64,000 bases of DNA from Ruminococcus sp. (lineage in GTDB: Bacteria; Bacillota; Clostridia; Oscillospirales; Acutalibacteraceae), in contig JAFRCW010000045.1 of the NCBI GenBank assembly GCA_017404145.1, positions 30,544 through 94,543 of the forward strand. The letters run 5' to 3'. A program made the position numbers and the translations under genes. Below, one piece after another: positions 28,801 to 50,763 of this stretch. The notes below the pieces were generated by a model that was not told the origin of the DNA, searched no databases, and worked only from the letters and a program-made list of their open reading frames with translations. How positions within the stretch are numbered: the first letter of the stretch is position 1; each line of letters begins with the position of its first letter.

Positions 28801-29103
28801 CCCATCCAAGAGCTTCTGATACAGATCGGCAAAGCTGCCGTAGACATACTCGTACCGCCAGCCGGTATACTCCGCAATCTTCAGGTAATACTCATATGCG
28901 TAGCCGGTCTTGACCGAGCCGGATTTCGCGCCCTCCTGAAACACCTCGTTCTCATAATAGCCAACCCTCACCGTTTTAGACCGGATCGGCTGCGCAAAAG
29001 CAAGAACGGGCAGTGTCGCTGACAGCAGCAAAGCCAGACACACGGCGACAGACAGCAGCCGCGCGCCGGCAAATACTCTTCTGTTTTTCTTTAAAATGTT
29101 CAT
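25825..29103 (-). CDS. BvgS/EvgS-like hybrid histidine kinase with two solute-binding sensor domains
   Basis: The start is the ATG at 29103 behind GGAGGG; the protein has 1092 residues. Order: signal/TM (about 10-35), SBP_bac_3-like domain 1 (about 45-260, 'TVRVGYYENEVFQEGA'), domain 2 (about 280-505, 'LTVGYLTNFLPYSDADQDGK'), TM (about 525-548), coiled coil, HisKA with 'NNMSHDIRTPMNAIVGF', HATPase ('NILTNAVKFTPSGG', 'GTGLGMAIAKNIVDLMGG'), receiver 1 ('IIDWLMPDLNG', 'VSKPL') and receiver 2 ('LAEDNELN', 'VLMDIQMPVMDG', 'LAKPYD'). Ligands are likely small molecules. No Hpt domain is fused; a separate Hpt gene lies directly upstream. Confidence 0.93.
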   Translation of the reverse strand: MNILKKNRRVFAGARLLSVAVCLALLLSATLPVLAFAQPIRSKTVRVGYYENEVFQEGAKSGSVKTGYAYEYYLKIAEYTGWRYEYVYGSFADLYQKLLDGEIDFLAGLAYKEERDGLIAYPEKRMGHETYNLIKHAPDVGITADPATQNGLTFGVLNSAVEGVLESYLYSNGIDATVKVFDDYDPLFTAFDQNQINILAAEDDGVYSRNRAEVLCSFGECDYYLCVNINREDLLAELNTAQRLLESEEPNYLNTLNNKYYPVKISSRTFSEPEREWLDEHDSLTVGYLTNFLPYSDADQDGKVSGMVSDLMPALLRKLSIPELSVSYQGYDNYDEMIADMGEGVIDVAFPVGGGLYYCEENGIYQSQPVTTILTDLVYLGEYDGNTEKSVAVNENNRMQYYYVRAAFPKAEIKYYPTIDDCLNAVLTGEVGCTVLNGIRSLEYLKNSKYKKLSLRQLPYSDDKGFGVEIGNEGLLKLINRGIGILGAEYFQNLAYRYTEGLYHYTFTDMLRDYMPLFVVLIIGIAALIIFFLIRNAIRKRNELCNQEKSRLELEEKNKELAESQKALSDALIAAENANRAKTAFLNNMSHDIRTPMNAIVGFTAMAATHIDNKQQVQDYLSKISVSSRHLLSLINDVLDMSRIESGKMKIDETEIHLPDLIHDLRTIIQSNVKAKQLELFIDTQDVKNEDIVADKLRLSQVLLNILTNAVKFTPSGGTISFRVIEKPCDAAGMTAFEFRIKDNGIGMSEEFLETIFEAFSRERNTTVSGIQGTGLGMAIAKNIVDLMGGKISVTSQVGKGSEFVVDIPCKIAGGQSDSFDLEKLRGLRALVADDDTNSCLSICSMLRDIGMHPDWTNYGKEAVIRAKEAFDQGDKFRVYIIDWLMPDLNGIETVRRIRSVIGDDDPIIVLTAYDWSDIEIEAREAGVTGFVSKPLFMSELKSALAEPFHMIAAQEEQEDEKFDFSGRRILLAEDNELNSMIAVSILEGVGFSVDVAENGEEAVRMVKDADEGCYDAVLMDIQMPVMDGYEAAGLIRLLDDKKKANIPIIAVTANAFEEDRKEALQAGMNGHLAKPYDIPEMLKLLNEVLQS

Positions 29104-29155
29104 AGCGCCCTCCGGTATTTTGCAAAGAATATTTCTGATATCGGAAGCTTCGGTT

Positions 29156-29500
29156 TTAATCGCACATCGCCTTGAGCTCGTCCCTCTTATCAAGCAGATC
29201 TTTCAGCAGAGGCGTATAATCCATCTCGCGCCTGACGCGCAGATGCTCGGTGATCTCGCTGCTTTTCTCGTACATCGGGGTCAGCGAAAGATTTCCCAGA
29301 ACACCCTTTAAGGCGTGAGCAGCTTCAAAGGCGCCGTCAAGATCGTTTTTTTCGATCGCATCCTTCAGTTTATCAAAGTTGTCCTCCTTGACAACCATTC
29401 CTATCAATCTCAAATACAGAGCTTCGTTGCCATAGCAGCGGGCAAGACCCTCCGCAGTATCTGCGCCGAAATCGTTGAGCTTATCAATTGTAACCATCAT
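29156..29500 (-). CDS. Stand-alone Hpt phosphotransfer protein
   Basis: The 114-residue helical protein has the Hpt motif 'FEAAHALKGVLGNLSLTPMY' (about residues 58-77), in which the His of 'AHALKG' is the phosphorylation site. It should pass phosphate between the receivers of the two hybrid kinases and the response regulator of the same operon. The start has two adjacent ATGs (29500, 29497) behind ACAGGAGGAA. Gaps are 23 bp to the upstream regulator and 52 bp to the downstream kinase. Confidence 0.9.
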   Translation of the reverse strand: MMVTIDKLNDFGADTAEGLARCYGNEALYLRLIGMVVKEDNFDKLKDAIEKNDLDGAFEAAHALKGVLGNLSLTPMYEKSSEITEHLRVRREMDYTPLLKDLLDKRDELKAMCD

Positions 29501-29523: not shown

Positions 29524-30372
29524 TTATTCTGTATATAACGCCGTGTGACTTCCTGCTGTAAGACTGTCACATGCCGCTTCTGCCTTTTTAAACCAAGTGT
29601 CTGTCGGCTGGGTCTTATCCACGTTCTCAAGAATACCCGCCTTGAGAGATACGCCTGTTCCGAAGCCGGTAACAAGCTGTTCCTCGACCTGCGTGATCAG
29701 CTCTTCATAGTTATTTTTGTGCGCGCAGAAAACATAGATGAGATTCTCTTTCGCGCGGCAGGCAATGCCTCTTCTGCCCGCGATCTGTTCCTTGATGAGC
29801 TTTGCGGCTTCTTTGATAACTTGTCCGTCACCGCCGCTCTCGACCCTGATTGCCACAGCGTCTGTTCCCATCTTCAGACCGTCAACCACACGGCGGATAT
29901 ATGCATCGAAAAACAGCTTGATATACAGACCCGTCTCGTCGTCCTTTTCCAGAGACCGGATCAGCTTTTTCTCCTCGCTGAGCTCGATGATCCGCTCGCA
30001 CCGTGCGAGAATGACCTCGGGCATACGGTAAGGCTTGGTGATAAAATCATCGGCTCCCATACGGATCGAACGCACTTCGGCGCTCTTCTCAGAGGTCATC
30101 ACGATGATCGGGATGGTCTTGAGCTTTTCATCCGCCTTGCATGCTTCGAGCACCTGAAAGCCGCTCATCTGCGGCATCAGCAAATCGAGCAGGATCAGTG
30201 AATACGGCTCCTCTGCGTGATAGAGCGCCTCCATCGCCTCTTTGCCGTTGGAAACACCGGTAACGTCATAATTGAGGGACAGTATCGCTTCAATCAGCTC
30301 GCGGTTGATCAGTTCATCGTCAACCGCCAAGACCCTTCTTTTCTTTCTGCTTGATTTCAAAAAATGATTCAT
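29524..30372 (-). CDS. Response regulator with degenerate GGDEF domain
   Basis: The 282-residue protein has a canonical receiver (about 12-130) with 'VLAVDDELINRELI', phospho-Asp in 'LILLDLLMPQMSG', 'VMTSE' and 'ITKPYRMPE'. The C-terminal half (about 140-280) follows the diguanylate cyclase fold: 'DDETGLYIKLFFDAYI' resembles the 'D.LTGL.NR..f' start and 'FKKAEAACDSLTAGSHTALY' resembles the A..ALY end. The GGDEF signature itself is replaced by 'ACRAKENLIYVFCAH', so cyclase activity is very unlikely. It could serve as a protein or nucleotide sensor. Confidence 0.82.
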   Translation of the reverse strand: MNHFLKSSRKKRRVLAVDDELINRELIEAILSLNYDVTGVSNGKEAMEALYHAEEPYSLILLDLLMPQMSGFQVLEACKADEKLKTIPIIVMTSEKSAEVRSIRMGADDFITKPYRMPEVILARCERIIELSEEKKLIRSLEKDDETGLYIKLFFDAYIRRVVDGLKMGTDAVAIRVESGGDGQVIKEAAKLIKEQIAGRRGIACRAKENLIYVFCAHKNNYEELITQVEEQLVTGFGTGVSLKAGILENVDKTQPTDTWFKKAEAACDSLTAGSHTALYTE

Positions 30373-30435: not shown

Positions 30436-33249
30436 TCAGCGGATCAGCTCCTCCAGCGTCGCATAAAGCTGTTCGGGTTCTACGGGCTTGGAAAGATGCG
30501 CGTTCATCCCCACCTGCAGCGAACGCTGAACGTCCTCGGCGAACGCGTTCGCGGTGAGCGCGATGATCGGAATACTCTGAGCGTCTTTTCTCAGCAGCGC
30601 GCGAATCGCCGCGGTGGTCTCCAAGCCGTCCATCACCGGCATACGCACATCCATCAAAATCGCGTCATAGTAGCCGGGAGCGCTGTTATCAAACATCGCC
30701 AGCGCCTCTTTGCCGTCCTTCGCGTGATCGGCTTCAATGCCTTTCATCGAAAGAACCTGCATCATGATCTCCGCGTTGATCGGCATATCCTCCGCCAGCA
30801 GGATCCTTCTGCCGGCAAGCTCCTTTTTCAAATTGCTGTTCTCTCTTCCCTGCATCAGCGCCTTTTGAATCTCGGCGCGCGCAGAAGCGGAAAACTCCTC
30901 TCTGGAGAGATAGACAGAAGCGCCCGCTTCGATCACTTCGCTCTTGGCTTCATCGTTGCGGTAGGCGGTCGTAACGATAACGGTCTCTCTGTCGCGGTAA
31001 CGCTCCTTGATCTTGCCGATCAGATTGAGACCGCATTTCCCGGGAGTTTTAAAGTCCAGCAAAATAAAGCTGTAGGGTTCGTTTTTGGCGTGCTGCACTT
31101 CCATCGCGTACAGCGCGTCTTCACCGCAGGAGGCGGTATCGTAAGCAACGCCGATGCTTTCCAGCGTCTTACAGGTGCTTTCCATCGTGACCGGATCGTT
31201 ATCCACGATCAGCGCCCTAAGCATTAAGGGATCAAACAGCGTGTTGTCTCCCGCGTTATGTTCACACTCTTTCAGAGTAACATTCACTGTAAAGGTGGTT
31301 CCGACACCCTTTTTTGACTCCACCGAAATATCGCCGTTCATCATCTCGACAATGTTCTTGGTGATCGCCATTCCCAGACCGGTGCTGCCGAAAGGACTGC
31401 TGCGGGTAGAATTCTCCTGGGAGAACGCGTCAAAGATATGCGGCAGGAAGCTCTCATCCATACCGATCCCTGTATCGCTGATGACAAAGCGCAGCGTCGC
31501 CTGATTATCAAACCGCGCGACCCTCACAACGGTCAGGCGGACGTCTCCCGGCGCTTCGGTGAACTTGATCGCGTTGGACAGGATATTGATAATAATCTGC
31601 TTGAGCTTGGTATCGTCGCCGAAATACCAGTCGTCTACCTCTCCCTTGACAAAGCATTCAAAGTTCAGTCCCTTTTCCTTACACTGCGCCTGAACCATCG
31701 TCCGGATCTGACCGATCATTTCCATCAAGGAGAATTCTGCGTTATGCAGCGTCATCTTGCCCGATTCGATACGGCTCATATCGAGGATATCGTTGATCAG
31801 GCTCAGCAGATGACCCGCGCTCTCACCGATCTTCTCAAGACAGTTTCGTGTCTGATCGCTGAGCGTCGGATCTCTGAGCGCGATGCTGTTGAGACCGATG
31901 ATCGCATTCATCGGCGTACGGATCTCATGGCTCATATTCGAGAGGAAGTACGTTTTTGCCTCGTTGGCGTGCTGGGCGATATTCAAAGCGTCGGCAAGGA
32001 TTTCGTACTGCTTTTGCTCTCTCTTAAGAACGTCTGTCACATCGGACTTGAGCAGCAAAAAGAAATTCGTCTTAAGATCCACAGCGTAGAAGGTAAACAC
32101 TTTGTAGTAGATTACACCCTCTATCTCACAGGTCACATGGACCGTATAGGATTCGTTTTCTTTGAGGTACTCGGCGATCGTTTCGGTGGAAAACGCTTTT
32201 TTCAGATCATCGATGTTATGTACCTTTTTAGACGCCGCGGGGAGCACCTGGTTCTTGATATAATCCGAATAAATACCGTTGTTCCATTTGGGAAAAATGC
32301 TTCCCTTGGAGATCTTGGACGCGTCGCCGATCATCACGCTGTAGTTATTGTCCACGATATAGGTAACCATATCGTACTGGCGCACCAGCACCTTCTCGTT
32401 GAGCACCTCGGAAACTCTCTCGTTGTTATACTCGGTCTCTGTCGCGAACAGCATCAGATCGGAGGAATCGGGATCATAAGCCACCGCCTGCGCAAAACGG
32501 ACAAAGCACTGCTTTCCCGACCGGCGGCGGCAGTAAGTGACAAAGGTCGCCGGAGGCTCGCCTTTATAGAAACGGTCCTTGAGCCTGTCGATCTCAAAGC
32601 ACTCATTAAACCGCTCCCGATCGCCCTTGATCAAAAAGCTGTCCAGCCTTGCCTGAAGAGAATCCCGGGAAACCTTTCCCACCACATCCTCCTCATAGAG
32701 GTCGATTCCGCTGATTTTCTCGATCCTTCCGGTGTTGAGGTTGGTCAGCACAGCGGTAAGGGCGGTCTTCGACGACGCCTCAAGCTGTTCAAGCATCGTA
32801 TTGAAAACATTGTTCCGTCGGTTGTTCTCCTCCTGTGCGAGGTACTTATCGGTGATATCGCCGATAAAGACATAGTACACGCTGCCGTATCCGGGAAGCT
32901 CAGAGAGATGACCGTAGTCGTCCACCCAGCGGATCGATCCGTCTCGCCTTACGATGCGGTATTTGACAAAGTCGCGGTTCTGGTTGTGGTAATTCGCGAT
33001 CTGTTCCTCGATCGACTTCTCGATCGACGGATAATCCCTCGGATATACCATTCCGCGGAAGGTATAGCCGGTCAGCAGCTTGAAATCCAGCAGATCCTTG
33101 CACCCGAACATCTTGATCGTCGCGCTGTTGACATAAATCAGCTCGGTGCTTTCATCTGCTCGGTATATAAAAAATCCGCCGGGAACCTGCTCGCCCATCC
33201 ATTCGATCGCGGTGGGAAGATAGCCGCTGTTCAGTAATTTGTTAAACAT
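30436..33249 (-). CDS. Cytosolic PAS hybrid histidine kinase with two receivers
   Basis: The start is the ATG at 33249 behind CGGAGTG; 937 residues, with no TM helix. Residues about 20-140 are a PAS domain ('GGFFIYRADESTELIYVNSA'), followed by PAS-like or divergent sensory segments to about 420. HisKA has 'SNMSHEIRTPMNAIIGL', HATPase 'NILSNAIKFTEAPG' and 'GSTGLGMAITKNIVEMM'. Receiver 1 is atypical: 'LIVDNDPV' and 'ILLDFKTPGKCG', with 'YLSREEF' instead of the usual K-P. Receiver 2 is canonical ('LLAEDMPIN', 'ILMDVRMPVMDG', 'LSKPVEPE'). It heads the four-gene phosphorelay operon. Confidence 0.92.
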   Translation of the reverse strand: MFNKLLNSGYLPTAIEWMGEQVPGGFFIYRADESTELIYVNSATIKMFGCKDLLDFKLLTGYTFRGMVYPRDYPSIEKSIEEQIANYHNQNRDFVKYRIVRRDGSIRWVDDYGHLSELPGYGSVYYVFIGDITDKYLAQEENNRRNNVFNTMLEQLEASSKTALTAVLTNLNTGRIEKISGIDLYEEDVVGKVSRDSLQARLDSFLIKGDRERFNECFEIDRLKDRFYKGEPPATFVTYCRRRSGKQCFVRFAQAVAYDPDSSDLMLFATETEYNNERVSEVLNEKVLVRQYDMVTYIVDNNYSVMIGDASKISKGSIFPKWNNGIYSDYIKNQVLPAASKKVHNIDDLKKAFSTETIAEYLKENESYTVHVTCEIEGVIYYKVFTFYAVDLKTNFFLLLKSDVTDVLKREQKQYEILADALNIAQHANEAKTYFLSNMSHEIRTPMNAIIGLNSIALRDPTLSDQTRNCLEKIGESAGHLLSLINDILDMSRIESGKMTLHNAEFSLMEMIGQIRTMVQAQCKEKGLNFECFVKGEVDDWYFGDDTKLKQIIINILSNAIKFTEAPGDVRLTVVRVARFDNQATLRFVISDTGIGMDESFLPHIFDAFSQENSTRSSPFGSTGLGMAITKNIVEMMNGDISVESKKGVGTTFTVNVTLKECEHNAGDNTLFDPLMLRALIVDNDPVTMESTCKTLESIGVAYDTASCGEDALYAMEVQHAKNEPYSFILLDFKTPGKCGLNLIGKIKERYRDRETVIVTTAYRNDEAKSEVIEAGASVYLSREEFSASARAEIQKALMQGRENSNLKKELAGRRILLAEDMPINAEIMMQVLSMKGIEADHAKDGKEALAMFDNSAPGYYDAILMDVRMPVMDGLETTAAIRALLRKDAQSIPIIALTANAFAEDVQRSLQVGMNAHLSKPVEPEQLYATLEELIR

Positions 33250-33301
33250 TCTTTCACTCCGTTTTTGATTTGCTGGTAGAGTTATCAATATATTCAGATT
33301 T

Positions 33302-33491: not shown

Positions 33492-33530
33492 AAAAAAGCG
33501 CTCCCGACAGCCTGATAACCGTCGGGAGCG
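33492..33530 (-). terminator. Strong terminator of the stator/Wzz-like operon
   Basis: A 10-bp perfect stem CGCTCCCGAC / GTCGGGAGCG with a 12-base loop, followed on the minus strand by TTTTTTA. It lies 38 bp past the stop at 33569. Confidence 0.85.
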
Positions 33531-33568
33531 TCTTGCTTTGAAGCATAACGAAGCAAATACAATAGGGA

Positions 33569-35395
33569 TTATTTCTTTGATTTGCCTTTGGATTTCTTTT
33601 TCTTTTTATCGGAGTTCTTTTGGGCTTTTTGTTTAGCCTTTTCTTTAGCTTCTTTTTCCGCCTTTTCTTTGGCTTCTTTTTCCGCCTTTTCTTTGGCTTC
33701 TTTTTCCGCCTTTTCTTCGGCTTCCTGTTCCGCCTTTTCTTTGGCTTCTTTTTCCGCCTTTTCCTTGGCTTCTTTTTGTGCCTGCTTTTGGGCTTCTTTC
33801 TCCGCCTTTCGCGTCTCTTTCAGAGCGAGTTTTTCCGCTTTCTTCTGCTCTTTCTGCGCCTTTTTATCCGGCTTTGCAGAAGAAGTGTTCTCGGATGTCT
33901 GAGCGGCGTTTTCGCCGTCCACGCTCGCCTCGATCTTCGCTTTACTCAACGCCCGCTCGGTTTTCTTTTTCTCTTTTTTCAAATCGGCGGCGCGCTTTTT
34001 GGCTTCTCTTTGGAGAGAGGCTGTCAGACGCTTCGGCGTGTTGAGAATCGTCTGTCTCCAGTTGACAACACAGTTGAAGATACCGCCCGCAACCGGGATA
34101 CCCGACTTGGAGATCCTGAACAGCGCGTTCTTGATATCCTCCACCTTGGTAGCGTCACACTTGATGACATAAACCATCGTATCGGTGATTTCGTTGAGAC
34201 GGAGCACCTGCGCGTCAACACCGACAGGAGACGTATCGATCAGCACATAGTCGTAGCCTTCCATTACCGCCGCAAGCTGACCCAGCATTGCGTCGTTGAG
34301 AGATGCAGGCTCTTCCTCGAGAACCGTCGGAAGAAGATCAAGGCATCCGTTGATGGATACGATCGCGTCGAGCTTATCCGACTCGCCTCTGTAGAGGGCG
34401 TTGAGCGACTGGATATAGGTAAGGTCGTCAGAGAACAGCGCGCCCAGCATCGGGTTCTTGAAGTTGCAGTCGATCAGGAGAGTCTTCTTACCCAGATCGG
34501 AAAACTGCAGCGCAATATCCGCGATCAGACGGGACTTGCCCTCAGCGTTCTCGGTAGAAGTGATATAAAGCTTGTTTGCCTTCGCCATCTCCAACCGGTT
34601 GAGCAGCAGATGGGTCACAGACTTGATCTCATCCTGAATCACCTTAGCCTCTTCAGAAAGAGGTTTTGACCGCGCGTAGTTAACGTTCAGCGGTACGGAT
34701 CCGAGCGAGTCGATCGAGAAAACCTCCTCCAGATCGATCTCGTTGATGACCGTTGTCGCGAGCAGGAATCTCAGGATACAGAACACCACTCCTGCGACAA
34801 AACCTGCAACCGCGGCATAAATCCAAGTAGAAAGGCTGATGTTGCCGCCGACGATGAAATTCGCCTTTGGCTCGTTGATCACCGCAACGCCGCCGATCTT
34901 CTCGGTCGCGATCATCGTCCGGTGAGAGACCTTGGTGATCGCGTCCATGATCTCAAGACCTTCCTTCTCGGTACGCCAGAGCAGCGTCAGCTCGATGATC
35001 TCGGTTTCGTTATATCGCGACACGTTCAGGTTGCGGGAGATATCTCCTGCCGAGATATTCTGAAGACCCAGTTCTTCTACAACCGCTTCCATATTTCTCT
35101 GGCTCTTGATGATATAAATAGCGGAATCGGTAAAGCCTCTCGCAAAGTCTATATCCGACTTGTACGGCTCTTTTGAATTCTCCGAGTAACGTCCCAGAGA
35201 GTTCACGGCTATCACCGCAACAGAGGAGGTGATTTTGTACTCTCTCGTCATCTCTCCGCGGACATAACCGAAGCCGATGATAGATACGCCCACCACCAGA
35301 CCGATCAGCGTAGAAATAACGATCAGCCGCCAGCCTTTGACAATATGATAGAAGATGTCGCTTTTTTTGAAAACCTTGGTTTTATTCTTATTCAT
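33569..35395 (-). CDS. Wzz/BY-kinase-like polysaccharide co-polymerase with Lys/Glu/Ala tail
   Basis: This 608-residue protein joins a Wzz-type chain-length domain (TM1 about 22-43, external region 44-188, TM2 about 190-212) to a CpsD/BY-kinase-like P-loop domain. The Walker A is 'TSTENAEGKS' (279-288), A' 'TLLIDCNF' (305-312) and B 'YVLIDTSP' (383-390). BY-kinases end in a Tyr cluster; here residues 460-608 contain no Tyr and are instead a highly charged repeat (units like KEAKEKAE), probably a long single helix or coiled coil. The start overlaps the preceding gene by 8 bp. Autokinase activity is doubtful; a role in surface polysaccharide length or export is inferred. Confidence 0.85.
   Translation of the reverse strand: MNKNKTKVFKKSDIFYHIVKGWRLIVISTLIGLVVGVSIIGFGYVRGEMTREYKITSSVAVIAVNSLGRYSENSKEPYKSDIDFARGFTDSAIYIIKSQRNMEAVVEELGLQNISAGDISRNLNVSRYNETEIIELTLLWRTEKEGLEIMDAITKVSHRTMIATEKIGGVAVINEPKANFIVGGNISLSTWIYAAVAGFVAGVVFCILRFLLATTVINEIDLEEVFSIDSLGSVPLNVNYARSKPLSEEAKVIQDEIKSVTHLLLNRLEMAKANKLYITSTENAEGKSRLIADIALQFSDLGKKTLLIDCNFKNPMLGALFSDDLTYIQSLNALYRGESDKLDAIVSINGCLDLLPTVLEEEPASLNDAMLGQLAAVMEGYDYVLIDTSPVGVDAQVLRLNEITDTMVYVIKCDATKVEDIKNALFRISKSGIPVAGGIFNCVVNWRQTILNTPKRLTASLQREAKKRAADLKKEKKKTERALSKAKIEASVDGENAAQTSENTSSAKPDKKAQKEQKKAEKLALKETRKAEKEAQKQAQKEAKEKAEKEAKEKAEQEAEEKAEKEAKEKAEKEAKEKAEKEAKEKAKQKAQKNSDKKKKKSKGKSKK
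33648..33776. repeat. 24-bp tandem coding repeats (KEAKEKAE units)
   Basis: About five copies of a 24-bp unit (plus strand GCTTCTTTTTCCGCCTTTTC...) encode the charged tail of the Wzz-like protein. They are likely variable in copy number. Confidence 0.75.
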
Positions 35396-36992
35396 TCTCT
35401 TTCTTCTTTCCTATCCTGCGGATGATCCGGACTATCACGAATACCAGCAGCGCGAACAGCGCCGCCGCGAGAGCCGCCGACACAGTATCCCACATGGTCC
35501 AGAATTTTGTCTCCAACTTTTGGAGCGTTCCGACGTCTTTCAGATCGATAATGTAATCGGAGGACTTTCTTCCGTTGATCTCCAGATAGTATACGCCGGG
35601 CTCAAGACCTTCGATCTGATACGCTTCTCCCGAAGCCTCCCATTCTTCCACAACATTATCGCTGCTGTCGAACAGCTTGATCCTGTTGCCGGTCACGCTG
35701 TTGCTAAAGACCATATCTTTGATGTCGACGCTCAAACGGATAATATATGCCGTCTGGCTGACATTTAAAGCAGCGTTGCCGTCGATACAGCCGTTGCCGT
35801 CTACCGTAAAGGTCAAAGGCTCTGTCGAGATGCGATAGGGCTTTGGAACACTCTTGAGCGCAACGGAATAGGAAGTGCTCTTGTTCAGATCGGTGATCGT
35901 GATCTTCCCGTCGGCGTCGGTACGCTGTTCTTCTTTATCCGTGATAGAATAGACAGCGCCCTTGATGGGTTCCTCGGTATACTCGTCTCTGAGGATAAAC
36001 TCCGCCCTCGTCTTTTCGCACTTGACCGTATAGGTTTTTGAATCGTTCTCCAGATAATCCAGTGTTACCGCAACGGGTGTGCGGTTCAAAGCGTAGTATT
36101 CCGCGGGGATCTTCTGCATCACGGTATACTTGCCGAGGTACAGCTGGATACTCTGTCCTCTTCCGTTTTCATCACAGGCAAACTCGTCGACCTTTTCGCC
36201 GTTTCTGTAACGAACGGTGCCGTCCAGAGTGACGACATCCTCCGCGGCATATACCTCATAGAGACTGCCGCCGACATTCTCGTTGGTCTGAGCGTCTACA
36301 TTCTGAATATAAATGATGCTCTTCGCAGGCGACATAGGAACGTCTACCAAGAACGGATCGGACCAGTCGCGCGCTTCATCAATGGTAAAGCTGACGTCCT
36401 GCGCCAGACCGTAGCCCTCGGGCGACTCCAGATTGTGGAGAGAATAGGTACCCTGTGTAATTTTCTCGGGCAGGAAGAAAGTTCCCGCCTCAGTCGTCTG
36501 GTACTGTTTATACTCGACCTTGTCCGGATAGTAGGTATGCAGCGCCATCAGACCGCCCGCGTTTCTGCTCGCGTAAAGCTCAAAGAGAATGCCTTCTTTC
36601 TTGATGACATTTTTTGTCTCTTCGTCGATTACCGTGACAAAGACAGCGGTCTTATCATGACCGACATCTATATAGATGCCGTCGTTTTCACTTGTGCCGG
36701 GATCGTCTACGCCGTCACCGCCGCCACCGCCGCCACCGCCGCTGTCATTCGACGTATTCTCGTTCTCGTGGTCAAACTCATGGCGGTACCGATCATAGTC
36801 ATCGGCAAGGTGTTCTTCGTAGTAGGTTTCATACTGGTAATCTTCCGTATGCTCCTCGTCGTTCATCTGCGTCAGCAGCAGCAACAGCAGCATCAGGATC
36901 AGAAGGATCACCAGCACCAAACCTGCCATAATGTCGGTAAACGATTTCCAGTAGCTCTCGTTCTCGACACTTGTCTTTTTTCTTAGCTTCAT
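35388..36992 (-). CDS. MotB/ExbD-like stator partner with SpaA-type Ig repeats
   Basis: Of 534 residues, the N-terminus resembles MotB/ZorB-type proteins: 'SYWKSFTDIMAGLVLVILL' (13-31), with D20 in the place of the ion-carrying Asp just before a TM helix (22-41). An acidic Tyr-rich stretch (45-80) and Gly8 run (85-92) follow. About four prealbumin/SpaA (Cna-B-like) Ig domains span about 115-485 ('GILFELYASRNAGG', 'GSLYEVYAAED', 'KGAVYSITDKE', 'PGVYYLEINGR'). A second TM is at about 503-525, with a cytosolic 'RRIGKKKENE' end. There is no OmpA-like peptidoglycan-binding domain and no LPXTG. It sits between the MotA-like and Wzz-like genes. Confidence 0.75.
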   Translation of the reverse strand: MKLRKKTSVENESYWKSFTDIMAGLVLVILLILMLLLLLLTQMNDEEHTEDYQYETYYEEHLADDYDRYRHEFDHENENTSNDSGGGGGGGGDGVDDPGTSENDGIYIDVGHDKTAVFVTVIDEETKNVIKKEGILFELYASRNAGGLMALHTYYPDKVEYKQYQTTEAGTFFLPEKITQGTYSLHNLESPEGYGLAQDVSFTIDEARDWSDPFLVDVPMSPAKSIIYIQNVDAQTNENVGGSLYEVYAAEDVVTLDGTVRYRNGEKVDEFACDENGRGQSIQLYLGKYTVMQKIPAEYYALNRTPVAVTLDYLENDSKTYTVKCEKTRAEFILRDEYTEEPIKGAVYSITDKEEQRTDADGKITITDLNKSTSYSVALKSVPKPYRISTEPLTFTVDGNGCIDGNAALNVSQTAYIIRLSVDIKDMVFSNSVTGNRIKLFDSSDNVVEEWEASGEAYQIEGLEPGVYYLEINGRKSSDYIIDLKDVGTLQKLETKFWTMWDTVSAALAAALFALLVFVIVRIIRRIGKKKENE

Positions 36993-37064
36993 AACAAAAC
37001 CTGACTAATCTACAGATATCTCGCCCTTCATCGGGAAGAGCTGTGCTTCATTCTTCTCACTCAA

Positions 37065-38594
37065 TCAAAAGGTGTAATGCATCAGTTTTTCAAACTCCGT
37101 GCGGGTCATCTCGGGATAAATATGTTCTCCTCTGCCCTCCAGACAGCCGTAGCGCTTAACGTCCGCAAGCAGTTTTGCGGAGGTGATCTTTTCGCAGGTG
37201 AGCTTCAGTCTCGCTTTCGCCGCCTGAGAGAAGATGCTCTCGATATCGTCCTCTTCCTCGGGAGCGGAAAGATCCAGACAGATCTCATCCGCAGCGATCT
37301 CGCCGAGATTGACGAGGTTGCCGCTGAAGTTGTTGATCGTGACCTTAAAGCCGTTCGCGATGAACTCCTTCTCCGCCTTCGACGCCTCATCGTGACAGAT
37401 CACATAGGCGGACTCGTCGATTGCGATCTCTACGTTCCTGGGCTCCAGATCATAAGAATCCATCAGATCCCTGATCGAATAATAAACATCAAGCGCCAGC
37501 AGGTCGGTCTTGCGGATATTCAGGATGATCGGAACGGGATGCAGCCCTCTGTCGATCCAGTCGCGCAGCGTTTTGAAAATATCCTCCCACAGATGCTGGT
37601 CGAGCTTGGCGATAAAGCCGTCGGATTCAACAATCGGCATATATACGGAAGGCTGAACGGGACCCAAAACCGAATGGTTCCACTGCAGCTTGCTTTCCGC
37701 CTTGATAACGGTACGGTCGGCAAGGTTGACGACAGGCTCCAGCAGGAAGGTGAATTCGCCGTGTTTCAAGCCGGAAAGGATATCGATCATCATCCTCTGT
37801 TCCTGAGCGGGATCGGCGGTGGTACGGTTGAGGTTCAAGCTCGAGTTGGTGCGCAGGACGTTCAGCGCCTCAATCATTTTCTCGGTGTTGAGATACTGCT
37901 TTGCGTTGATCTGCTCCTCAGCGGATGGCTGAATACGGTTATGGAACTCCTGCGTGAACATCTGACACTCTCTGAGCATCATATTCCAGATCAGACGATA
38001 CGCCACGTTGAACAGAATCGACAGGATGACGCCGGCGATAGAAGTATAGAACGCGGTTGCGATACCGCGCAGCAGATTCTCAATACTCTCTCTGGTCGCT
38101 TCCGCAGAGCTGAACGCAACCGAGCTGATACCGGTGACCAAACCCAAGAAGGTGCCCAGAAGACCCAGCGCCGTCAGAATACCCGCGATCTGCAGCACAA
38201 CACCGCGCCACGAATGCAGCGACAGCGTCTCTTCGTTGATCACATCCTCGATATCGCTGATGATGACGCCCTTATCTCTCTCGTCCTTGACGTCGTCAAG
38301 ATAGGACTCAAAAATATCATCCAGTGTTTTTTCCTTAAAAAACGGCGTAACGTTCGCGACAGCGGTCCAGATCACGTCGGCGTTGATATCCGTTGCGCGA
38401 TCGATGCTTTTCTGTCCCTCTCTGAACCCCTGACTGTATCTCAGGCAGGGCAGAAGTCCGAAAACAAAGCCCAAAGCGACAGCGACATCCATCAATCCGA
38501 TGATCGCCATCGACATATAATCGGGAGAAATTACCGTCAGCAATATACATACCACCGCGAAAAACGCGGATAAGAATATCATTACCTTTCTCAT
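37065..38594 (-). CDS. MotA/TolQ/ExbB-type ion channel fused to a degenerate EAL domain
   Basis: The 509-residue protein has four TM helices (about 5-23, 28-50, 131-157, 175-203). A cytosolic loop (51-125) and the TM3/TM4 motifs 'LGLLGTFLGLVTG' (143-155) and 'GIATAFYTSIAGVILSILFN' (177-196) are the MotA/TolQ/ExbB signature. Residues 279-505 form an EAL-type barrel lacking catalytic residues: ESKLQW (300-305) replaces EALLRW, INNFSGN (420-426) replaces the DDFGTG loop and LDLS (440-443) replaces KID. It probably neither cleaves c-di-GMP nor is an active enzyme, but may bind a ligand or protein. AGGAGG precedes the ATG; it opens a three-gene operon. Confidence 0.85.
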   Translation of the reverse strand: MRKVMIFLSAFFAVVCILLTVISPDYMSMAIIGLMDVAVALGFVFGLLPCLRYSQGFREGQKSIDRATDINADVIWTAVANVTPFFKEKTLDDIFESYLDDVKDERDKGVIISDIEDVINEETLSLHSWRGVVLQIAGILTALGLLGTFLGLVTGISSVAFSSAEATRESIENLLRGIATAFYTSIAGVILSILFNVAYRLIWNMMLRECQMFTQEFHNRIQPSAEEQINAKQYLNTEKMIEALNVLRTNSSLNLNRTTADPAQEQRMMIDILSGLKHGEFTFLLEPVVNLADRTVIKAESKLQWNHSVLGPVQPSVYMPIVESDGFIAKLDQHLWEDIFKTLRDWIDRGLHPVPIILNIRKTDLLALDVYYSIRDLMDSYDLEPRNVEIAIDESAYVICHDEASKAEKEFIANGFKVTINNFSGNLVNLGEIAADEICLDLSAPEEEDDIESIFSQAAKARLKLTCEKITSAKLLADVKRYGCLEGRGEHIYPEMTRTEFEKLMHYTF

Positions 38595-38669
38595 CCTTGC
38601 CTCCTGATAACGATTTCGGTCATAAAAAACTGCGGGGATTACACTATCCCATAATAAACCTATTTTATT

Positions 38670-38698
38670 ATTATACCTTTTTCGGCATATAATGTCAA
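38670..38698 (-). promoter_or_regulatory. Consensus sigma-A promoter of the stator/Wzz-like operon
   Basis: Perfect TTGACA (38693-38698), 17 bp, perfect TATAAT (38670-38675) on the minus strand. It lies between the Wzt stop (38712) and the MotA-like start (38594), giving a leader of about 70 nt. Confidence 0.85.
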
Positions 38699-38711: not shown

Positions 38712-39995
38712 TCACAGCTTCTTCAGCTTCTTTTTGATAACGTCCTTCAAGCGGATCGAACCCCATTTGAGCTGGTTCCACTCGTATTCTTTTCTGCTCT
38801 CCAAGTCAAAATAATATGCTTCCAAAACGATATCCTGCTCATGCAGAGTGCCGAATGAGTCAATATTGAACAGAATCAGCTCCCCTCTGTAGGATGAAGG
38901 AACCATTCCGGCAAAGCTCATCCCGACAACCAACTCATTCTCTCCTTTTTCAAGCGTACCGATATCCATACACAGTGAGGAAGCGATTTTTCTGTCGTAC
39001 ATATCGAAATAACCGAAACGGATACTGACGCGATCCAGCTTCGTCTCGGAATTGATCATAATCCGCGCGGTCACATCCTCATCATCATAAAATGTATTCT
39101 TCTCTTTGTTCAAAAATTCGATCGACTCAAAAGTAACGATACGGTTGTCTCTTCTGCCGATATATCTTTTCGCCTCTCTGAGGTCATGGTAGGAGGCGAT
39201 GTCCTTCTTATGAATATCGGAATACAGCCCGATCGCTTCTTCCACATCACCGTCAAAAATCAGCTTGCCGTGGTCTAACACCACACATCTGTCGCACAGC
39301 TGACGAATGGTATTCATATTATGGCTGACGTAGAGAACGGTTCTGCCTTCCGACCGGGATACCTCGCTCATCTTTTCCAGACACTTGTGCTGGAACTTCA
39401 TATCGCCGACCGCCAGCACCTCGTCCATCACGAGGATATCCGCGTCCAGATGAGCGGAAACAGAGAACGCCAGCTTGACGTACATACCCGAGGAATATCT
39501 CTTGACGGGCGTATCGATAAACTGACGGCACTCGGAGAAGTCGATGATCTGATCGATCTTCCTGCTGACCTCTGAGCGACTCATTCCTAAGATCGCGCCG
39601 TTGAGATAGATGTTCTCTCTTCCGGTCAGTTCGCCGTGAAAGCCGGTGCCGACCTCCAGCATGGAAGAGATCCTGCCGTCAACGCAGATCCTGCCCTGTG
39701 TAGGCGCGGTCACGCGGGAGAGAATCTTGAGCAGCGTGGATTTTCCCGCGCCGTTGTGACCGATAATGCCGATCCTTTCCCCTTTGTATATTGTCAGATC
39801 GATCCCGTCCAGCGCAAGAAATCTCTCATTCCTCGCATATGCTTTGGCGCCTATTTGGGAGTTGGGGTCTTCCTTGCCTCGCTTTCTGGCGATCCAGCTC
39901 TGGATATCTCCCTGTAAGGTTCCGCCGCCGATCACACCGAGACGGTACTCCTTCTTCAAGCCTTCTATCTTGATCGCAATATCTTTTTCACTCAT
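38712..39995 (-). CDS. Wzt-like ABC exporter ATPase with C-terminal sugar-binding domain
   Basis: The start is the ATG at 39995 behind AGGTGAAG, giving 427 residues. The ABC domain (about 5-250) has Walker A 'GIIGHNGAGKST', signature 'VKRYSSGMYVKLAFS' and Walker B 'ADILVMDEVLAVGD', plus 'VLYVSHN'. Residues about 280-405 form a Wzt C-like beta sandwich that in homologues recognises the modified end of the polysaccharide. It powers export of the glycan with the Wzm-like permease 11 bp upstream. An in-frame extension to 40175 lies inside the permease gene and is not real. Confidence 0.9.
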   Translation of the reverse strand: MSEKDIAIKIEGLKKEYRLGVIGGGTLQGDIQSWIARKRGKEDPNSQIGAKAYARNERFLALDGIDLTIYKGERIGIIGHNGAGKSTLLKILSRVTAPTQGRICVDGRISSMLEVGTGFHGELTGRENIYLNGAILGMSRSEVSRKIDQIIDFSECRQFIDTPVKRYSSGMYVKLAFSVSAHLDADILVMDEVLAVGDMKFQHKCLEKMSEVSRSEGRTVLYVSHNMNTIRQLCDRCVVLDHGKLIFDGDVEEAIGLYSDIHKKDIASYHDLREAKRYIGRRDNRIVTFESIEFLNKEKNTFYDDEDVTARIMINSETKLDRVSIRFGYFDMYDRKIASSLCMDIGTLEKGENELVVGMSFAGMVPSSYRGELILFNIDSFGTLHEQDIVLEAYYFDLESRKEYEWNQLKWGSIRLKDVIKKKLKKL

Positions 39996-40006
39996 ATCTT
40001 CACCTG

Positions 40007-40849
40007 TCAAACCGTATCCATAAAGGTTCTTTCTACTCTGTTGAAAATCACGATGCCGATAAAGAGGACAATGATCGACACGATCCAGCTGATCCCCCAG
40101 AACAGCATCGGAGCAGTGCCCGACCCGAGCCATCCGTAACGCATCAGCTCGATGACCGGAGACACCGGGTTGCACATCAGCGCCGTATACCCGCCCTCAG
40201 ACAGCGAGGAGCTTGCGATAATAACGGGAGAGAAATACATCCACAGCTGGATACCGAACGAAACCATTACCTGCAGATCGCGGTATTTGGTCGTCAGCGA
40301 AGAGATGATGATACCGCAGCCCATACCGAGGATCGCCATCTCCAGCACCATCAGCGGCGTCAGCGCCGCGACCCATGTGATATGGATATCCGAACCTCTG
40401 GCGATAAAATACACCAAGAATCCCAAGAACATCACGAACTGGATAAAGAAATTCACCAGCGACGAGATGACATTCGATACCGGCGTCGTCAGACGGGGGA
40501 AATAAATTTTACCGAAGATACTCGCGTTGCCCGTAAACGTGTTGGAGGTATTGCTCAGACAGGTGGAAAAATAAATCCACATAATATTACCCGCCATATA
40601 GAACAGGAACTGCGGCACACCGTCGGTAGGCAGCTTCGCCATATTACCGAATACAACCGTCTGCACGATGGTAACAAACAGCGGCTGTATAATAAACCAC
40701 AAGGGACCCAGAATCGTCTGCTTATACTTCGTCGAGAAGTCTCTCTTGACAAAAAGATATACCAGATCCCTGTACTCCCAGAGCTCTTTGAGCCTGAGAT
40801 CAAATAATTTTTTCTTCGGCTCTATAATTGTTGTCCATTTCTTTTCCAT
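40007..40849 (-). CDS. Wzm-like ABC-2 polysaccharide exporter permease
   Basis: The 280-residue protein has about six TM helices and the ABC-2 permease opening 'LWEYRDLVYLFVKRDFSTKY' followed by 'QTILGPLWFIIQPLFVTIV'. It is the membrane half of the transporter with the Wzt-like ATPase. I use the ATG at 40849 behind GGTGGA, not the GTG at 40864. The gap of about 100 bp to the glycosyltransferase upstream holds no clear terminator or promoter. Confidence 0.9.
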   Translation of the reverse strand: MEKKWTTIIEPKKKLFDLRLKELWEYRDLVYLFVKRDFSTKYKQTILGPLWFIIQPLFVTIVQTVVFGNMAKLPTDGVPQFLFYMAGNIMWIYFSTCLSNTSNTFTGNASIFGKIYFPRLTTPVSNVISSLVNFFIQFVMFLGFLVYFIARGSDIHITWVAALTPLMVLEMAILGMGCGIIISSLTTKYRDLQVMVSFGIQLWMYFSPVIIASSSLSEGGYTALMCNPVSPVIELMRYGWLGSGTAPMLFWGISWIVSIIVLFIGIVIFNRVERTFMDTV

Positions 40850-40952
40850 AATTGATTCCACCAAAATTCATGATAAACTGCAGTGATAACAGGATTTCGC
40901 TCTTTTCACACAAGTGACATCGTATCCGCGTCATCCGCGGCGATCGTCGATA

Positions 40953-42017
40953 TTACTCCTCGATCCCTTTCATCTTATGATACATACGCACAAGTGGCGC
41001 GGGACACGCTTTGAGGATTTTTGCTTTTTTCTGCTGTGTTTGCTTTTTTCTGTTTTGAGCCTTCAGATATCCGGCTCCGTCCTGCGGCGGGAGGATCTTA
41101 AAGCCGAATTCCTCACCGCATTCTTTCTGTCTTTCAAAGGACTCGACATAATACTCGTTGTTCAGAATCGCCGTGATCTGCTCCGCCTTCTTCTCGTCGC
41201 TTGCCGAAGAAAGGAGGATCTTTTCGATCACCCAGATCGCCGACTGCAAAATCCGCTTGTCGATGATCTTCTGCAGCTCGTCCGTCATAAAGCCGTACGC
41301 GAGGGATTTATCATATACGAACCGGTTGATCCTCAGGATCCGGAGATAAGCATCCTCGCCGCTGTAGGAGGTAATGGACCGGCTCGAATAGCGGATGTAG
41401 TGATAGTCCGGATCATCGATCAGTACGATGGAACGCGCAGATTCCAGATACATAAAGTTGATCATGGTATCCATACCCTGTCTGACGTCGCTTTCGACCC
41501 GTATCTTCTTCAGAATAGAAGAACGGTACGCTTTTCCGTAGACATAATTGAGCCGTCTGTCGTCGAGCAGCATCGGGAGCTTTTCGAGAAAATCCTCCCG
41601 CGGGATCAGCATTTCTCCCCTCGCCTTGAACTCACCCTCTACATAGCCGCTCTCCATATGATACCGCACCCTGGAGATCGAGAGATCCGCGCCGTATTTT
41701 TCGATCGCGGTCATCAGATGTTCCAGATAACCCGGCTCTACATAGTCGTCGCCGTCCACATAGGCGGTGTACTCCGTCTCGATATATTCCATCGCGCGGT
41801 TCTTGATGCCCGCGATGCCCAAATGCTCACAGGGGATCACCCTAATCCGGCTGTCCTGCTTCTCAAATGACCGGCAGACCTCCAAGCTGTTATCCTCGGA
41901 GCCGTCGTCCAGCACCAGCAGAACATAGTCCTCAAAGGTCTGACTGCGCATCGCTTCAAAAAACCGCGGCAGATATTCGGCAATATTATAGACTGTCACA
42001 ATGACCGTCAGCTTCAT
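40953..42017 (-). CDS. GT2-family glycosyltransferase
   Basis: The 354-residue GT-A enzyme opens with 'LTVIVTVYNIAEYLPRFF', with 'LVLDDGSEDNS' and the DxD motif in 'AYVDGDDYVEPGYL' (about residues 88-101). The C-terminal ~130 residues are basic and helical. Its close paralogue lies at 44464-45558 (shared 'DRRLNYVYGKAYR', 'DVRQGMDTMINF', 'SRSITSY'). The start overlaps the preceding GT4 gene (ATGA). Donor and acceptor unknown. Confidence 0.88.
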   Translation of the reverse strand: MKLTVIVTVYNIAEYLPRFFEAMRSQTFEDYVLLVLDDGSEDNSLEVCRSFEKQDSRIRVIPCEHLGIAGIKNRAMEYIETEYTAYVDGDDYVEPGYLEHLMTAIEKYGADLSISRVRYHMESGYVEGEFKARGEMLIPREDFLEKLPMLLDDRRLNYVYGKAYRSSILKKIRVESDVRQGMDTMINFMYLESARSIVLIDDPDYHYIRYSSRSITSYSGEDAYLRILRINRFVYDKSLAYGFMTDELQKIIDKRILQSAIWVIEKILLSSASDEKKAEQITAILNNEYYVESFERQKECGEEFGFKILPPQDGAGYLKAQNRKKQTQQKKAKILKACPAPLVRMYHKMKGIEE

Positions 42018-43171
42018 CCGTTTTCTTTCCTTTCCAAAATGGTTTCTATCTGCTGAAAGATTCTTTCCTCACTGAAAAAATCCTGTCTTTCTTTCGCTTT
42101 ATTCCGATACGTTTCAAGCAGATCGGGATCGCTGCAAAACGCTTTCAGTCCGCGGTACAGACCTTCCTCGCTGTTTTCAACGATCATTCCGTACCTGCCG
42201 CCGTCAAGGATCTCACCGGGTCCCGTGCAGTCGGTGGAAATCACCGGCGTGCCGAGAATCAGCGCCTCGGCGACCGTGAGGTTATAGCCCTCATAATAAG
42301 AAGAACATACCAGCAGATCCGCCTCTTTGATATACGGGTAAGGATTGCGCAGGGAACCTGTCATCGTGATATACTCCTGCGCGTCGTTTTGAAGGATCTC
42401 CTGTCGAAGCGTCTTCTCATCCTCGCCGCCTCCTACAACCGTAAGGGAAATACTCTCTCCCTCACCGCGCAGCTTTGAAACGGTTCGGATCAATCTGAGC
42501 TGACCTTTCGCCTTATCCTCCAGCCTGGCGACAACCGCCAACCGCAGACGAGCGGGCGGTATCAGACGCCCCTCGGCAGTCTCAGCAAGCGTCCGGATTC
42601 TCTCAACATCAAGCATATTATAGACGACCTCAAGGTTACCTGTATCGCCGATCACTTCACAAAAGCCTGTCTTTGCCTCCTTCGATACGCAGACGACCCT
42701 GTCAAGCCGGCGGTAAGCCTCGCTCACCTGCTTCATATCGGAGAAATTATTCTGATAGCCTCTCGCTTTTCGAAAGTCGTTATGTACCCACGCGAGATGT
42801 ACGGCGTTTCGATTCATTGAACCGCTGACGATCTTAACGCACAAGCCTCTGAAAAAAGCGATCTCAGCGTCATATGTTTTATTACCGATATAATATCGAT
42901 AGAGCTGTTCCGGCTTTGCGCGCGTCTCCCACATTCCGTCGTCATACAGCCTGTGACGCAGATAAGGGAGCTTTCTGCCGAAATGCTCTTTGTACGGCTT
43001 TTTGATCAGAGAAACGGCGGGGTCCAGTTCATCCTTCATACTGTCTTCTGTATCTGTCAGCAGTATCGTCACGTCATATTCTTTTTTGACCAATCGGTTG
43101 GAGAGCGTGACCAACACCCGCTCCATACCGCCCACTCCGAGAGAGGGCGCGACAAACAGTATTTTCTTCAT
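42014..43171 (-). CDS. GT4-family glycosyltransferase
   Basis: This 385-residue GT-B enzyme starts 'MKKILFVAPSLGVGGMERVL', with a C-terminal nucleotide-sugar domain containing 'LAVVARLEDKAKGQLRLI', 'YYEGYNLTVAEALILGTPVI' (about 295-314, the E-x7-E motif) and 'STDCTGPGEIL'. It is the paralogue of the next gene upstream (43220-44395). The start is uncertain: ATG at 43171 or GTG at 43180, neither with a strong ribosome site. Confidence 0.88.
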   Translation of the reverse strand: MKKILFVAPSLGVGGMERVLVTLSNRLVKKEYDVTILLTDTEDSMKDELDPAVSLIKKPYKEHFGRKLPYLRHRLYDDGMWETRAKPEQLYRYYIGNKTYDAEIAFFRGLCVKIVSGSMNRNAVHLAWVHNDFRKARGYQNNFSDMKQVSEAYRRLDRVVCVSKEAKTGFCEVIGDTGNLEVVYNMLDVERIRTLAETAEGRLIPPARLRLAVVARLEDKAKGQLRLIRTVSKLRGEGESISLTVVGGGEDEKTLRQEILQNDAQEYITMTGSLRNPYPYIKEADLLVCSSYYEGYNLTVAEALILGTPVISTDCTGPGEILDGGRYGMIVENSEEGLYRGLKAFCSDPDLLETYRNKAKERQDFFSEERIFQQIETILERKENG

Positions 43172-43219
43172 TTTTATCACACGAAATTATTTACGTCATC
43201 AGAAACGCGTTCTTGTCAA

Positions 43220-44395: not shown

Positions 44396-44463
44396 CTGTT
44401 CTACCCCCCATTTTTCGTCCCGATCTGTGATCGATCATCATCCGTTTAAAACGGGATCGACAG

Positions 44464-45558: not shown

Positions 45559-45602
45559 TCCCTTTGCCTATTGTTCGTCTCAACCTCAAATCGAAAGCCT
45601 TT

Positions 45603-46559: not shown

Positions 46560-46562
46560 AAT

Positions 46563-48624: not shown

Positions 48625-48656
48625 AACAACACTCTTTTCGCTGTTTGATACCGCCG

Positions 48657-50762: not shown

Positions 50763-50763
50763 C

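What the first reader, a model, noticed from the sequence alone, without database searches (positions are those of the whole stretch)
33492..38698. Operon coding a MotA-EAL channel, a MotB-like SpaA protein and a Wzz/BY-kinase-like protein
Seen: the three genes lie head to tail between a consensus promoter (38670-38698) and a strong terminator (33492-33530), the last two overlapping by 8 bp. The MotA/TolQ/ExbB helices, the single Asp before the partner TM helix, and the Wzz/P-loop layout are all visible. Known: MotAB, ExbBD, TolQR and ZorAB use ion flow through such pairs to move or rotate a load. Inference: here the load is extracellular SpaA-like Ig repeats, and the motor is coupled to glycan assembly or export through the Wzz-like protein. 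I do not know of a described system with this set of parts.
Basis: partly seen in the sequence, partly recalled or inferred. Interest (0 to 1): 0.93.

Follow-up and report, generated by a model that had tools for sequence, protein, structure and literature searches.

The report
Ion-driven motor in glycan-assembly operons
A rare three-gene set in gut clostridia encodes relatives of bacterial ion-driven motor proteins, with pilin-like domains on the outer arm, next to a sugar-chain-assembly protein; it would likely use the cell's ion gradient to pace the building of surface sugar coats, a coupling our literature searches did not find described.

Summary
Genes A (MotA + EAL), B (MotB-type helix + SpaA domains) and C (Wzz + BY-kinase-like) lie between a 12/12 promoter and a strong terminator. 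The set recurs: 28 of 31 named-genome loci carry A-B-C in order on one strand; the other three are cut by contig ends. B's W15 and D20 are invariant in 87 of 87 rows, and D20 aligns with the ion-path Asp of ZorB (D24/D21). A's T141, T148, T184 and S185 are invariant in 74 of 74. B lacks the wall-binding domain of MotB/ZorB; it has a tether, four beta domains (by model) and a second membrane helix (87 of 87). The EAL site is ruined and the host genome has no GGDEF match; deeper relatives keep most site residues. C's tail has no tyrosine and its Walker A is degraded. Glycan-assembly genes flank 25 of 31 loci against 3 of 47 control loci. Best reading: a 5:2-type ion motor coupled to a polysaccharide co-polymerase, perhaps in place of tyrosine-phosphorylation cycling. 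Motor anatomy is strong by homology, the glycan link strong by context, the coupling inferred. New variant of a known kind.

The parts
38670..38698 (-). Promoter TTGACA-N17-TATAAT, 12/12
   Evidence: 11 or 12 of 12 matches upstream of A in 7 of 7 near relatives
38600..38605 (-). Likely ribosome-binding site AGGAGG before the ATG of A
   Evidence: read in the sequence
37065..38594 (-). Gene A, 509 aa: MotA/ZorA-like channel subunit with C-terminal degenerate EAL domain
   Evidence: Pfam, NCBIfam and PADLOC ZorA models, model m6da3a18dfb6a, mean pLDDT 86.5
38040..38153 (-). Ion-path Thr/Ser of A: T148 (38151-38153) to S185 (38040-38042)
   Evidence: invariant in 74 of 74 rows; aligned with ZorA chains
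37080..37811 (-). EAL domain (residues 262-505) with lost catalytic residues
35388..36992 (-). Gene B, 534 aa: MotB/ZorB-type N-terminal helix, tether, SpaA-like domains, C-terminal membrane helix
36864..36956 (-). B membrane helix 1 (residues 13-43) with W15 and D20 (D20 = 36933-36935)
   Evidence: W15 and D20 in 87 of 87 rows; D20 aligned with ZorB D24 and D21
35502..36653 (-). Extracellular beta domains of B (residues 114-497), four by the model
35406..35495 (-). B membrane helix 2 (residues 500-529)
33569..35395 (-). Gene C, 608 aa: Wzz-type membrane part, BY-kinase-like P-loop domain, Lys/Glu-rich tail without Tyr
33492..33530 (-). Intrinsic terminator, 14-pair stem and T tract
38712..40864 (-). 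Wzt-like (38712-40175) and Wzm-like (40007-40864) exporter genes just upstream; context, not part of the operon
   Evidence: Pfam ABC_tran and ABC2_membrane

Best explanation
A and B are homologues of the two subunits of ion-driven 5:2 motors and would likely form such a motor, predicted to act on C, a Wzz/BY-kinase-like co-polymerase encoded in the same operon, so that ion flow rather than tyrosine phosphorylation would pace surface-glycan assembly. Shown here: the homologies, the invariant ion-path residues, the conserved gene trio, the glycan-gene context, and the losses in EAL and C. Inferred: (1) five A surround two B helices and ions pass at D20 against the Thr/Ser ring; (2) B is held by membrane helices at both ends, its four-domain rod standing in the glycan layer and its long tether allowing the loop, so that B is an anchored axle in place of wall-bound MotB/ZorB; (3) the A ring with its EAL crown moves against C's cytosolic part or, by strain through B, against C's outer part; (4) this cycles C between oligomeric states, which canonical PCP-2 proteins do through a tyrosine kinase, a route C seems to lack; (5) in relatives with a near-intact EAL site c-di-GMP would gate the motor, whereas in this window's lineage the crown is probably only a mechanical or protein-binding part.
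For: Ion-path residues: W15 and D20 of B in 87 of 87 rows, T141, T148, T184 and S185 of A in 74 of 74; D20 aligns with ZorB D24/D21, which pack on a Ser/Thr ring in solved ZorAB (PMC11890865). Glycan context: 25 of 31 loci against 3 of 47 control loci; with window-seeded or generic GT2, GT4 and Wzm profiles alone 22 of 31 against 3 of 47; 106 of 109 such genes in L031-L063 lie on A's strand; VanZ-Wzy_C-Wzx-GT4 in that order after C in 8 of 18 loci L044-L061; initiating sugar transferase just before A in L044, L055, L059, L060. C: no Tyr in the window's 166-residue tail; Walker A Lys replaced by R or V in 9 of 21 rows. Precedents: AglRQS-Nfs moves glycan on spores; pseudokinase EcpK serves a PCP-2 protein (abstract).
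Against: No complex was modelled and no contact between the motor and C is shown; adjacency could mean co-regulation only. B's C-terminal membrane helix, unlike any 5:2 motor I know of (recalled), makes free rotation of B unlikely. Distance correlations within the trio are not clearly higher than with a neighbour: A-B 0.94, B-C 0.91, A-C 0.85, but B-VanZ 0.95 and C-WzyC 0.92. The window keeps Lys and both Asp of the P-loop in C, so ATP use is not excluded. In the window's lineage the exporter is Wzm/Wzt, where a PCP-2 protein is not classically needed (recalled). 6 of 31 loci showed none of the counted glycan genes, several on short contigs.
Confidence: 0.45

Rival explanations
1. Surface-transport motor: the pair moves finished glycan or a glycan-bound rod over the cell surface, as AglRQS-Nfs does on Myxococcus spores or GldLM in gliding, while C only sets chain length.
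For: [quoted passage not shown] GldM also has four extracytoplasmic domains (PMC9389320, passage); B has four by the model.
Against: B is tied to the membrane at both ends. No gliding or adhesin gene was noted among the neighbours that were scanned.
Confidence: 0.2
2. Gated ion channel as a signalling device: A and B sense the state of the glycan layer or a cytosolic ligand and pass it on as ion flow or conformation to C and to the downstream kinase, with no mechanical work.
For: EAL-fold crown, HD-domain and response-regulator genes beside A in L057, L059 and L060, hybrid histidine kinase and response regulator downstream in the window.
Against: The full set of ion-path residues of work-performing motors is invariant; the kinase genes are not constant neighbours.
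Confidence: 0.15
3. c-di-GMP switch: the set is above all a c-di-GMP-controlled brake or activator of the co-polymerase, the channel part being secondary.
For: In 18 of 18 loci L044-L061 the site keeps the Glu of EAL, Asn, Glu of ExTE, first Asp, Lys and Gln, and the EGVE Glu in 16 of 18; the second Asp of DDFG is G or N. Their genomes hold 2-47 GGDEF matches.
Against: The trio persists with a ruined site in 13 of 13 surveyed rows of the window's clade, in a genome with 0 GGDEF matches, and without EAL in L062 and L063, probably also L144.
Confidence: 0.1
4. Zorya-like anti-phage defence motor that has settled in a glycan locus.
For: ZorA and ZorB are the closest PADLOC, NCBIfam and solved relatives.
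Against: No wall-binding domain in B, EAL in place of the ZorA tail, and a glycan neighbourhood instead of effector genes. PADLOC was run on A, B and C only.
Confidence: 0.05

Closest known systems
ZorAB core motor of Zorya defence (8VVN, 8VVI, 8QYD)
   Same: Nearest solved relatives of A's channel (8vvn_C 1.1e-8) and B's helix (8vvn_B 2.7e-5); ion-path Asp and Thr/Ser aligned
   Different: ZorB has a peptidoglycan-binding domain and ZorA a long tail, both needed for defence (PMC11890865); here SpaA domains, a second membrane helix and an EAL crown, with C and glycan genes instead of ZorC/D/E
AglRQS-Nfs/Glt of Myxococcus
   Same: MotAB-type motor whose cargo is a surface glycan
   Different: Diderm; separate transport complex (Nfs or Glt); no SpaA arm, EAL crown or Wzz fusion reported in the parts read
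GldLM (gliding, type IX secretion)
   Same: 5:2 motor with four extracytoplasmic domains on the B-type subunit (PMC9389320 passage)
   Different: GldM's domains form a shaft towards the outer membrane; B returns to its own membrane by a C-terminal helix
PCP-2 co-polymerases with BY-kinase or pseudokinase (Wzc, CapAB, EpsV-EcpK)
   Same: C has the Wzz-plus-P-loop layout; relatives CapAB 2.2e-11, Wzc 2.8e-9
   Different: No Tyr in the window's tail, degraded Walker A, and genetic linkage to a motor
Degenerate EAL receptors (FimX, LapD)
   Different: Fused to a channel subunit; in this lineage ligand-site residues are scattered too

Membership tests
5:2 ion-driven motors (Mot/Tol/Exb/Zor class) | A-type subunit with MotA_ExbB domain and four membrane helices | tested here: met
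   Pfam over cut-off; helices in the model
5:2 ion-driven motors (Mot/Tol/Exb/Zor class) | B-type subunit with one N-terminal helix bearing the ion-path Asp; Thr/Ser ring in A | tested here: met
   87 of 87 and 74 of 74 rows; alignment to ZorB and ZorA
5:2 ion-driven motors (Mot/Tol/Exb/Zor class) | Five A around two B, ion-driven motion | not testable with these tools
   no complex prediction or experiment available
Flagellar stator MotAB / Zorya ZorAB | OmpA-type peptidoglycan-binding domain on B | tested here: not met
   no such Pfam match at E 0.1 in B; SpaA and a second membrane helix instead
Zorya defence system | ZorC/ZorD or ZorE beside ZorAB | tested here: inconclusive
   neighbours scanned by Pfam show glycan and two-component genes; PADLOC run on A, B, C only
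EAL phosphodiesterase | Full set of catalytic residues | tested here: not met
   window: ExTE Glu to Ala, DD to NN, Lys to Cys, Gln to Arg; second Asp kept in 1 of 147 rows (motif roles recalled)
c-di-GMP receptor EAL (FimX/LapD type) | Ligand-site residues kept and ligand made in the cell | tested here: inconclusive
   window: site ruined and 0 GGDEF matches; L044-L061 keep most residues; binding itself not testable
PCP-2 polysaccharide co-polymerase | Wzz domain between two membrane helices fused to a cytosolic P-loop domain | tested here: inconclusive
   Wzz 8.9e-4, eps_fam 2.2e-21, TIGR01006 2.5e-14, all below curated cut-offs; context fits
Active BY-kinase | C-terminal tyrosine cluster | tested here: not met
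   0 Tyr in the window's 166-residue tail; 0-4 Tyr in 20 of 21 rows, 7 in L048
Active BY-kinase | Walker A, A-prime and B | tested here: inconclusive
   window has AEGKS and both Asp; Lys kept in 12 of 21 rows, R or V in 9; both Asp invariant
Sortase-anchored SpaA pilin or adhesin | LPXTG-like sorting signal | tested here: not met
   0 of 87 B rows in the last 90 residues

The most novel reading that the evidence does not exclude
A new class of cell-surface machine: an ion-gradient-driven rotary or stepping motor, with an adhesin-like arm anchored at both ends, that mechanically cycles a polysaccharide co-polymerase in gut clostridia, taking the place of tyrosine phosphorylation; c-di-GMP gates it in the older lineages, and the window's lineage has dropped that control.
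Probability: 0.28. Interest if true: 0.92.

Novelty: new variant of a known kind. Interest (0 to 1): 0.78.

Why it matters
The 5:2 motors described in the papers read here act on flagella, outer-membrane transport, gliding and secretion, spore-coat glycan or phage defence; one wired to the chain-length machinery of capsule or exopolysaccharide would give that machinery a new energy source. It makes an open question testable: how PCP-2-type proteins without a phosphorylation cycle change oligomeric state. It also shows a motor whose wall anchor has been replaced by a second membrane anchor, and a natural series of EAL domains decaying on one scaffold. Two hosts are named strains (Faecalibacterium gallinarum JCM 17207 and Lachnoclostridium sp. 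Marseille-P6806), so experiments may be possible.

Tried and rejected
Sortase pilus or adhesin: rejected, 0 of 87 B rows carry an LPXTG-like signal. Active c-di-GMP phosphodiesterase: rejected on site residues. c-di-GMP receptor in this very genome: unlikely, 0 GGDEF matches in a genome rated 100% complete, and its only EAL match is A itself; a cyclase outside that profile is not excluded. Flagellar or Tol/Exb context: A is the only MotA_ExbB match in the genome.

The GGDEF contrast (median 3 in the 14 genomes of the window's clade, 27 in the 18 genomes of L044-L061, Mann-Whitney p 7e-5) is not independent evidence: the 14 form one clade (100/99), so it is one event; genome completeness is not known for the 33 genomes behind the loci. 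Special co-evolution of the trio by distance correlation led nowhere, since neighbours correlate as well. Foldseek and VIA-align with the whole A model listed only EAL chains, so the channel part is untested by fold search; it rests on sequence. Foldseek hits of B (TIE protein 6fwv, pilins) have low TM-scores, 0.15-0.28 of the query among the 50 listed. A search of the order with the B profile gave 67 of 394 genomes at 1e-10, but only 3 were full-length; the rest matched over parts, mostly SpaA domains of long proteins.

Caveats on counts. A of L037 is cut at residue 427 and was not in the motif survey. Glycan profiles for Wzy_C, Wzx, VanZ, Polysacc_synt_2, DegT and one GT4 were seeded from some of the loci later counted; hence the narrower count. 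Control loci L064-L110 were taken as MotA/MotB-type pairs from the look of the next gene (not shown for L070 and L096). The 147 rows of the motif survey include the window twice (itself and P0001) and probably some proteins as both P and L rows; listed proteins under 440 aa and L037, L062, L063 were left out. A2 used 26 of 29 loci with a complete B (L033, L051, L053 left out); A3 used 20 of 30 loci with C; A4 used 62 of the 114 proteins and 24 loci; A5 used 61 of the 120 listed of the 275 found and 12 loci.

Literature: no description of the set (open-access library only; some returned mostly unrelated papers). In the mBio survey of MotAB relatives (PMC12505986) the words EAL, SpaA, polysaccharide and fusion do not occur; in the Zorya paper EAL, c-di-GMP and polysaccharide do not occur.
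Full report
WHAT IS THERE. Three minus-strand genes lie head to tail: A 37065-38594, B 35388-36992, C 33569-35395, the last two overlapping by 8 bp. A 12/12 promoter (38698-38670) and a 14-pair terminator (33530-33499) bound them. A promoter with 11 or 12 of 12 matches lies upstream of A in 7 of 7 near relatives. Upstream are a Wzt/Wzm-like exporter and a run of 17 ORFs (40953-59587), 14 of them with glycosyltransferase matches. Downstream are a hybrid histidine kinase (30436-33288) and a response regulator (29524-30372). The genome has 2.54 Mb in 56 contigs and is rated 100% complete.

c-di-GMP BACKGROUND. The window's genome has 0 GGDEF matches and a single EAL match, which is A. The 14 genomes of the window's clade have 0-8 GGDEF matches (median 3), the 18 others 2-47 (median 27). 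This fits loss of ligand control in the window's lineage but, being one clade, is not statistical proof.

GENE B. Pfam SpaA in three stretches and a weak SdrD_B match at 431-494. The model (mean pLDDT 81.2) shows a helix 13-43, a disordered tether 44-110, strands from 117 to 497 that I read as four domains, and a helix 500-529. W15 and D20 are invariant in 87 of 87 rows. D20 aligns with D24 of type I ZorB (8vvn_B) and D21 of type II ZorB (8vvi_A), the residues that pack on the ZorA Ser/Thr ring in the cryo-EM work (PMC11890865, section 6, part 1 of 2 read). Hydropathy gives a membrane segment at both ends in 87 of 87 and none in residues 131-460. The tether has 59-110 residues (median 73) and the domain block 384-391 in 25 of 27 rows. 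A tether of about 70 residues could span a stack of four such domains, so B can loop out and back to the membrane (inference from lengths). No OmpA-type Pfam match and no sorting signal were found.

GENE C. NCBIfam eps_fam (2.2e-21) and TIGR01006 (2.5e-14) match below their curated cut-offs; solved relatives are CapAB and Wzc kinases. The window's 166-residue tail has no Tyr and 30% Lys; tails of 20 of 21 rows have 0-4 Tyr and L048 has 7. Walker A reads AEGKS in the window; the Lys is kept in 12 of 21 rows and is R or V in 9, while both Walker Asp positions are invariant. This resembles the pseudokinase EcpK, which works with a PCP-2 protein without phosphorylation (PMC12004946, abstract).

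CONSERVATION OF THE SET. Of 31 named-genome loci whose A has channel and EAL parts (L031-L061), 28 have A, B and C in order on one strand; in L037, L038 and L045 the contig ends first (L045 keeps the start of B; L039's B is split into two ORFs). Identity of A falls to 34%. L062 and L063 (Lachnospiraceae) keep the trio with a 264- or 258-residue A without EAL, and L144 looks the same (A matched only at 1-245). So EAL is optional, and channel + arm + co-polymerase is the core. The set is rare and patchy: no full-length A among 35 other genomes of the genus, where G027 may hold a short relic; full-length B in 3 of 394 genomes of the order, 3 of 391 of the class and 1 of 398 of the phylum, each count including this genome and the samples overlapping. 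MAG labels range over Oscillospiraceae, Lachnospiraceae, Christensenellaceae and Erysipelotrichaceae.

GLYCAN CONTEXT. With profiles for GT2, GT4, Wzm, Wzy_C, Wzx and Polysacc_synt_2, 25 of 31 loci have at least one match against 3 of 47 control loci, found by the same scan and holding MotA/MotB-type pairs (Fisher p 1e-11). With GT2, GT4 and Wzm only: 22 of 31 against 3 of 47. Of 109 matches (VanZ and DegT included) in L031-L063, 106 lie on A's strand. In L044-L061, VanZ, Wzy_C, Wzx and GT4 follow in that order in 8 of 18 loci, others having part of the run or another order; families were checked by Pfam on examples, where one Wzx-like protein (L059) had no Pfam match. A Bac_transf initiating enzyme precedes A in L044, L055, L059 and L060. 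A survey of VanZ also ties VanZ-1 to exopolysaccharide genes including Wzz (PMC12419801, passages). C therefore sits where the co-polymerase of a Wzx/Wzy pathway is expected; in the window's lineage the exporter is Wzm/Wzt.

HOW IT MOST LIKELY WORKS. Shown: homology, invariant ion-path residues, two-ended anchoring of B by hydropathy and model, gene trio, glycan context, losses in EAL and C. Inferred: A and B form a 5:2-type motor; B, held by two membrane helices, is the anchored axle; movement of the A ring with its crown, or strain through B, cycles C between oligomeric states and so paces polymerisation or export. Canonical PCP-2 proteins change state through a BY-kinase (abstract); C seems to lack that chemistry, which is the gap the motor would fill. 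Glycan as the object of such a motor has a precedent in AglRQS-Nfs, where bead transport on the spore surface needs AglQ and is abolished by CCCP and glycan clusters move with NfsD (PMC3858216, section 13). GldM, with four extracytoplasmic domains, is the nearest in shape (PMC9389320, passages).

NOVELTY. It works like a 5:2 motor and meets the sequence features of that class tested here, but it is not Zorya, a flagellar stator, a sortase pilus, an EAL enzyme or a canonical BY-kinase by the tests listed. Searches of the open-access library found no description of the set; most subscription papers are not covered. I rate it a new variant of a known kind, with a minority chance that it is the first known motor for glycan polymerisation.

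Noticed in passing
window 29524-30372 (-): Response regulator whose second half looks like a degenerate GGDEF domain (motif recalled; Pfam finds only the receiver); a relative lies after the trio in L032, L034, L035 and L036.
   Followed up: partly
window 25825-29193 (-): Hybrid histidine kinase with two SBP_bac_3 stretches as sensor part.
   Followed up: no
L059:5604-6914, L060:8648-9958: Initiating sugar transferase (Bac_transf) fused to an N-terminal HD domain (HD_5), just before A.
   Followed up: partly
L057:8669-9748: Response regulator with HD_5 domain just before A in Faecalibacterium gallinarum.
   Followed up: no
L048:3790-6117: The tail of C seems to hold a segment like B's second SpaA domain (seen by eye; B and C fall in one BLAST cluster).
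   Followed up: partly
L062, L063, L144: Versions of the trio whose A lacks the EAL domain (L144 from the match range only).
   Followed up: partly
L020:1501-1593 (genome G027, same genus): 31-residue stretch 61% identical to A residues 108-138, possibly a relic of a lost copy.
   Followed up: partly
L064-L110 (47 loci): Common MotA/MotB-type pairs in Lachnospiraceae and kin whose B ends in an OmpA-like motif (recalled), largely outside glycan loci; their function is not addressed here.
   Followed up: partly
L141 (G000:C32:29559-29810): The genome has a second, more typical Wzz protein elsewhere, over the Pfam cut-off.
   Followed up: no
window 61211-62158 and 63232-63993 (-): CHAP-domain protein and BspA-type leucine-rich-repeat protein beyond the glycosyltransferase run.
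   Followed up: no
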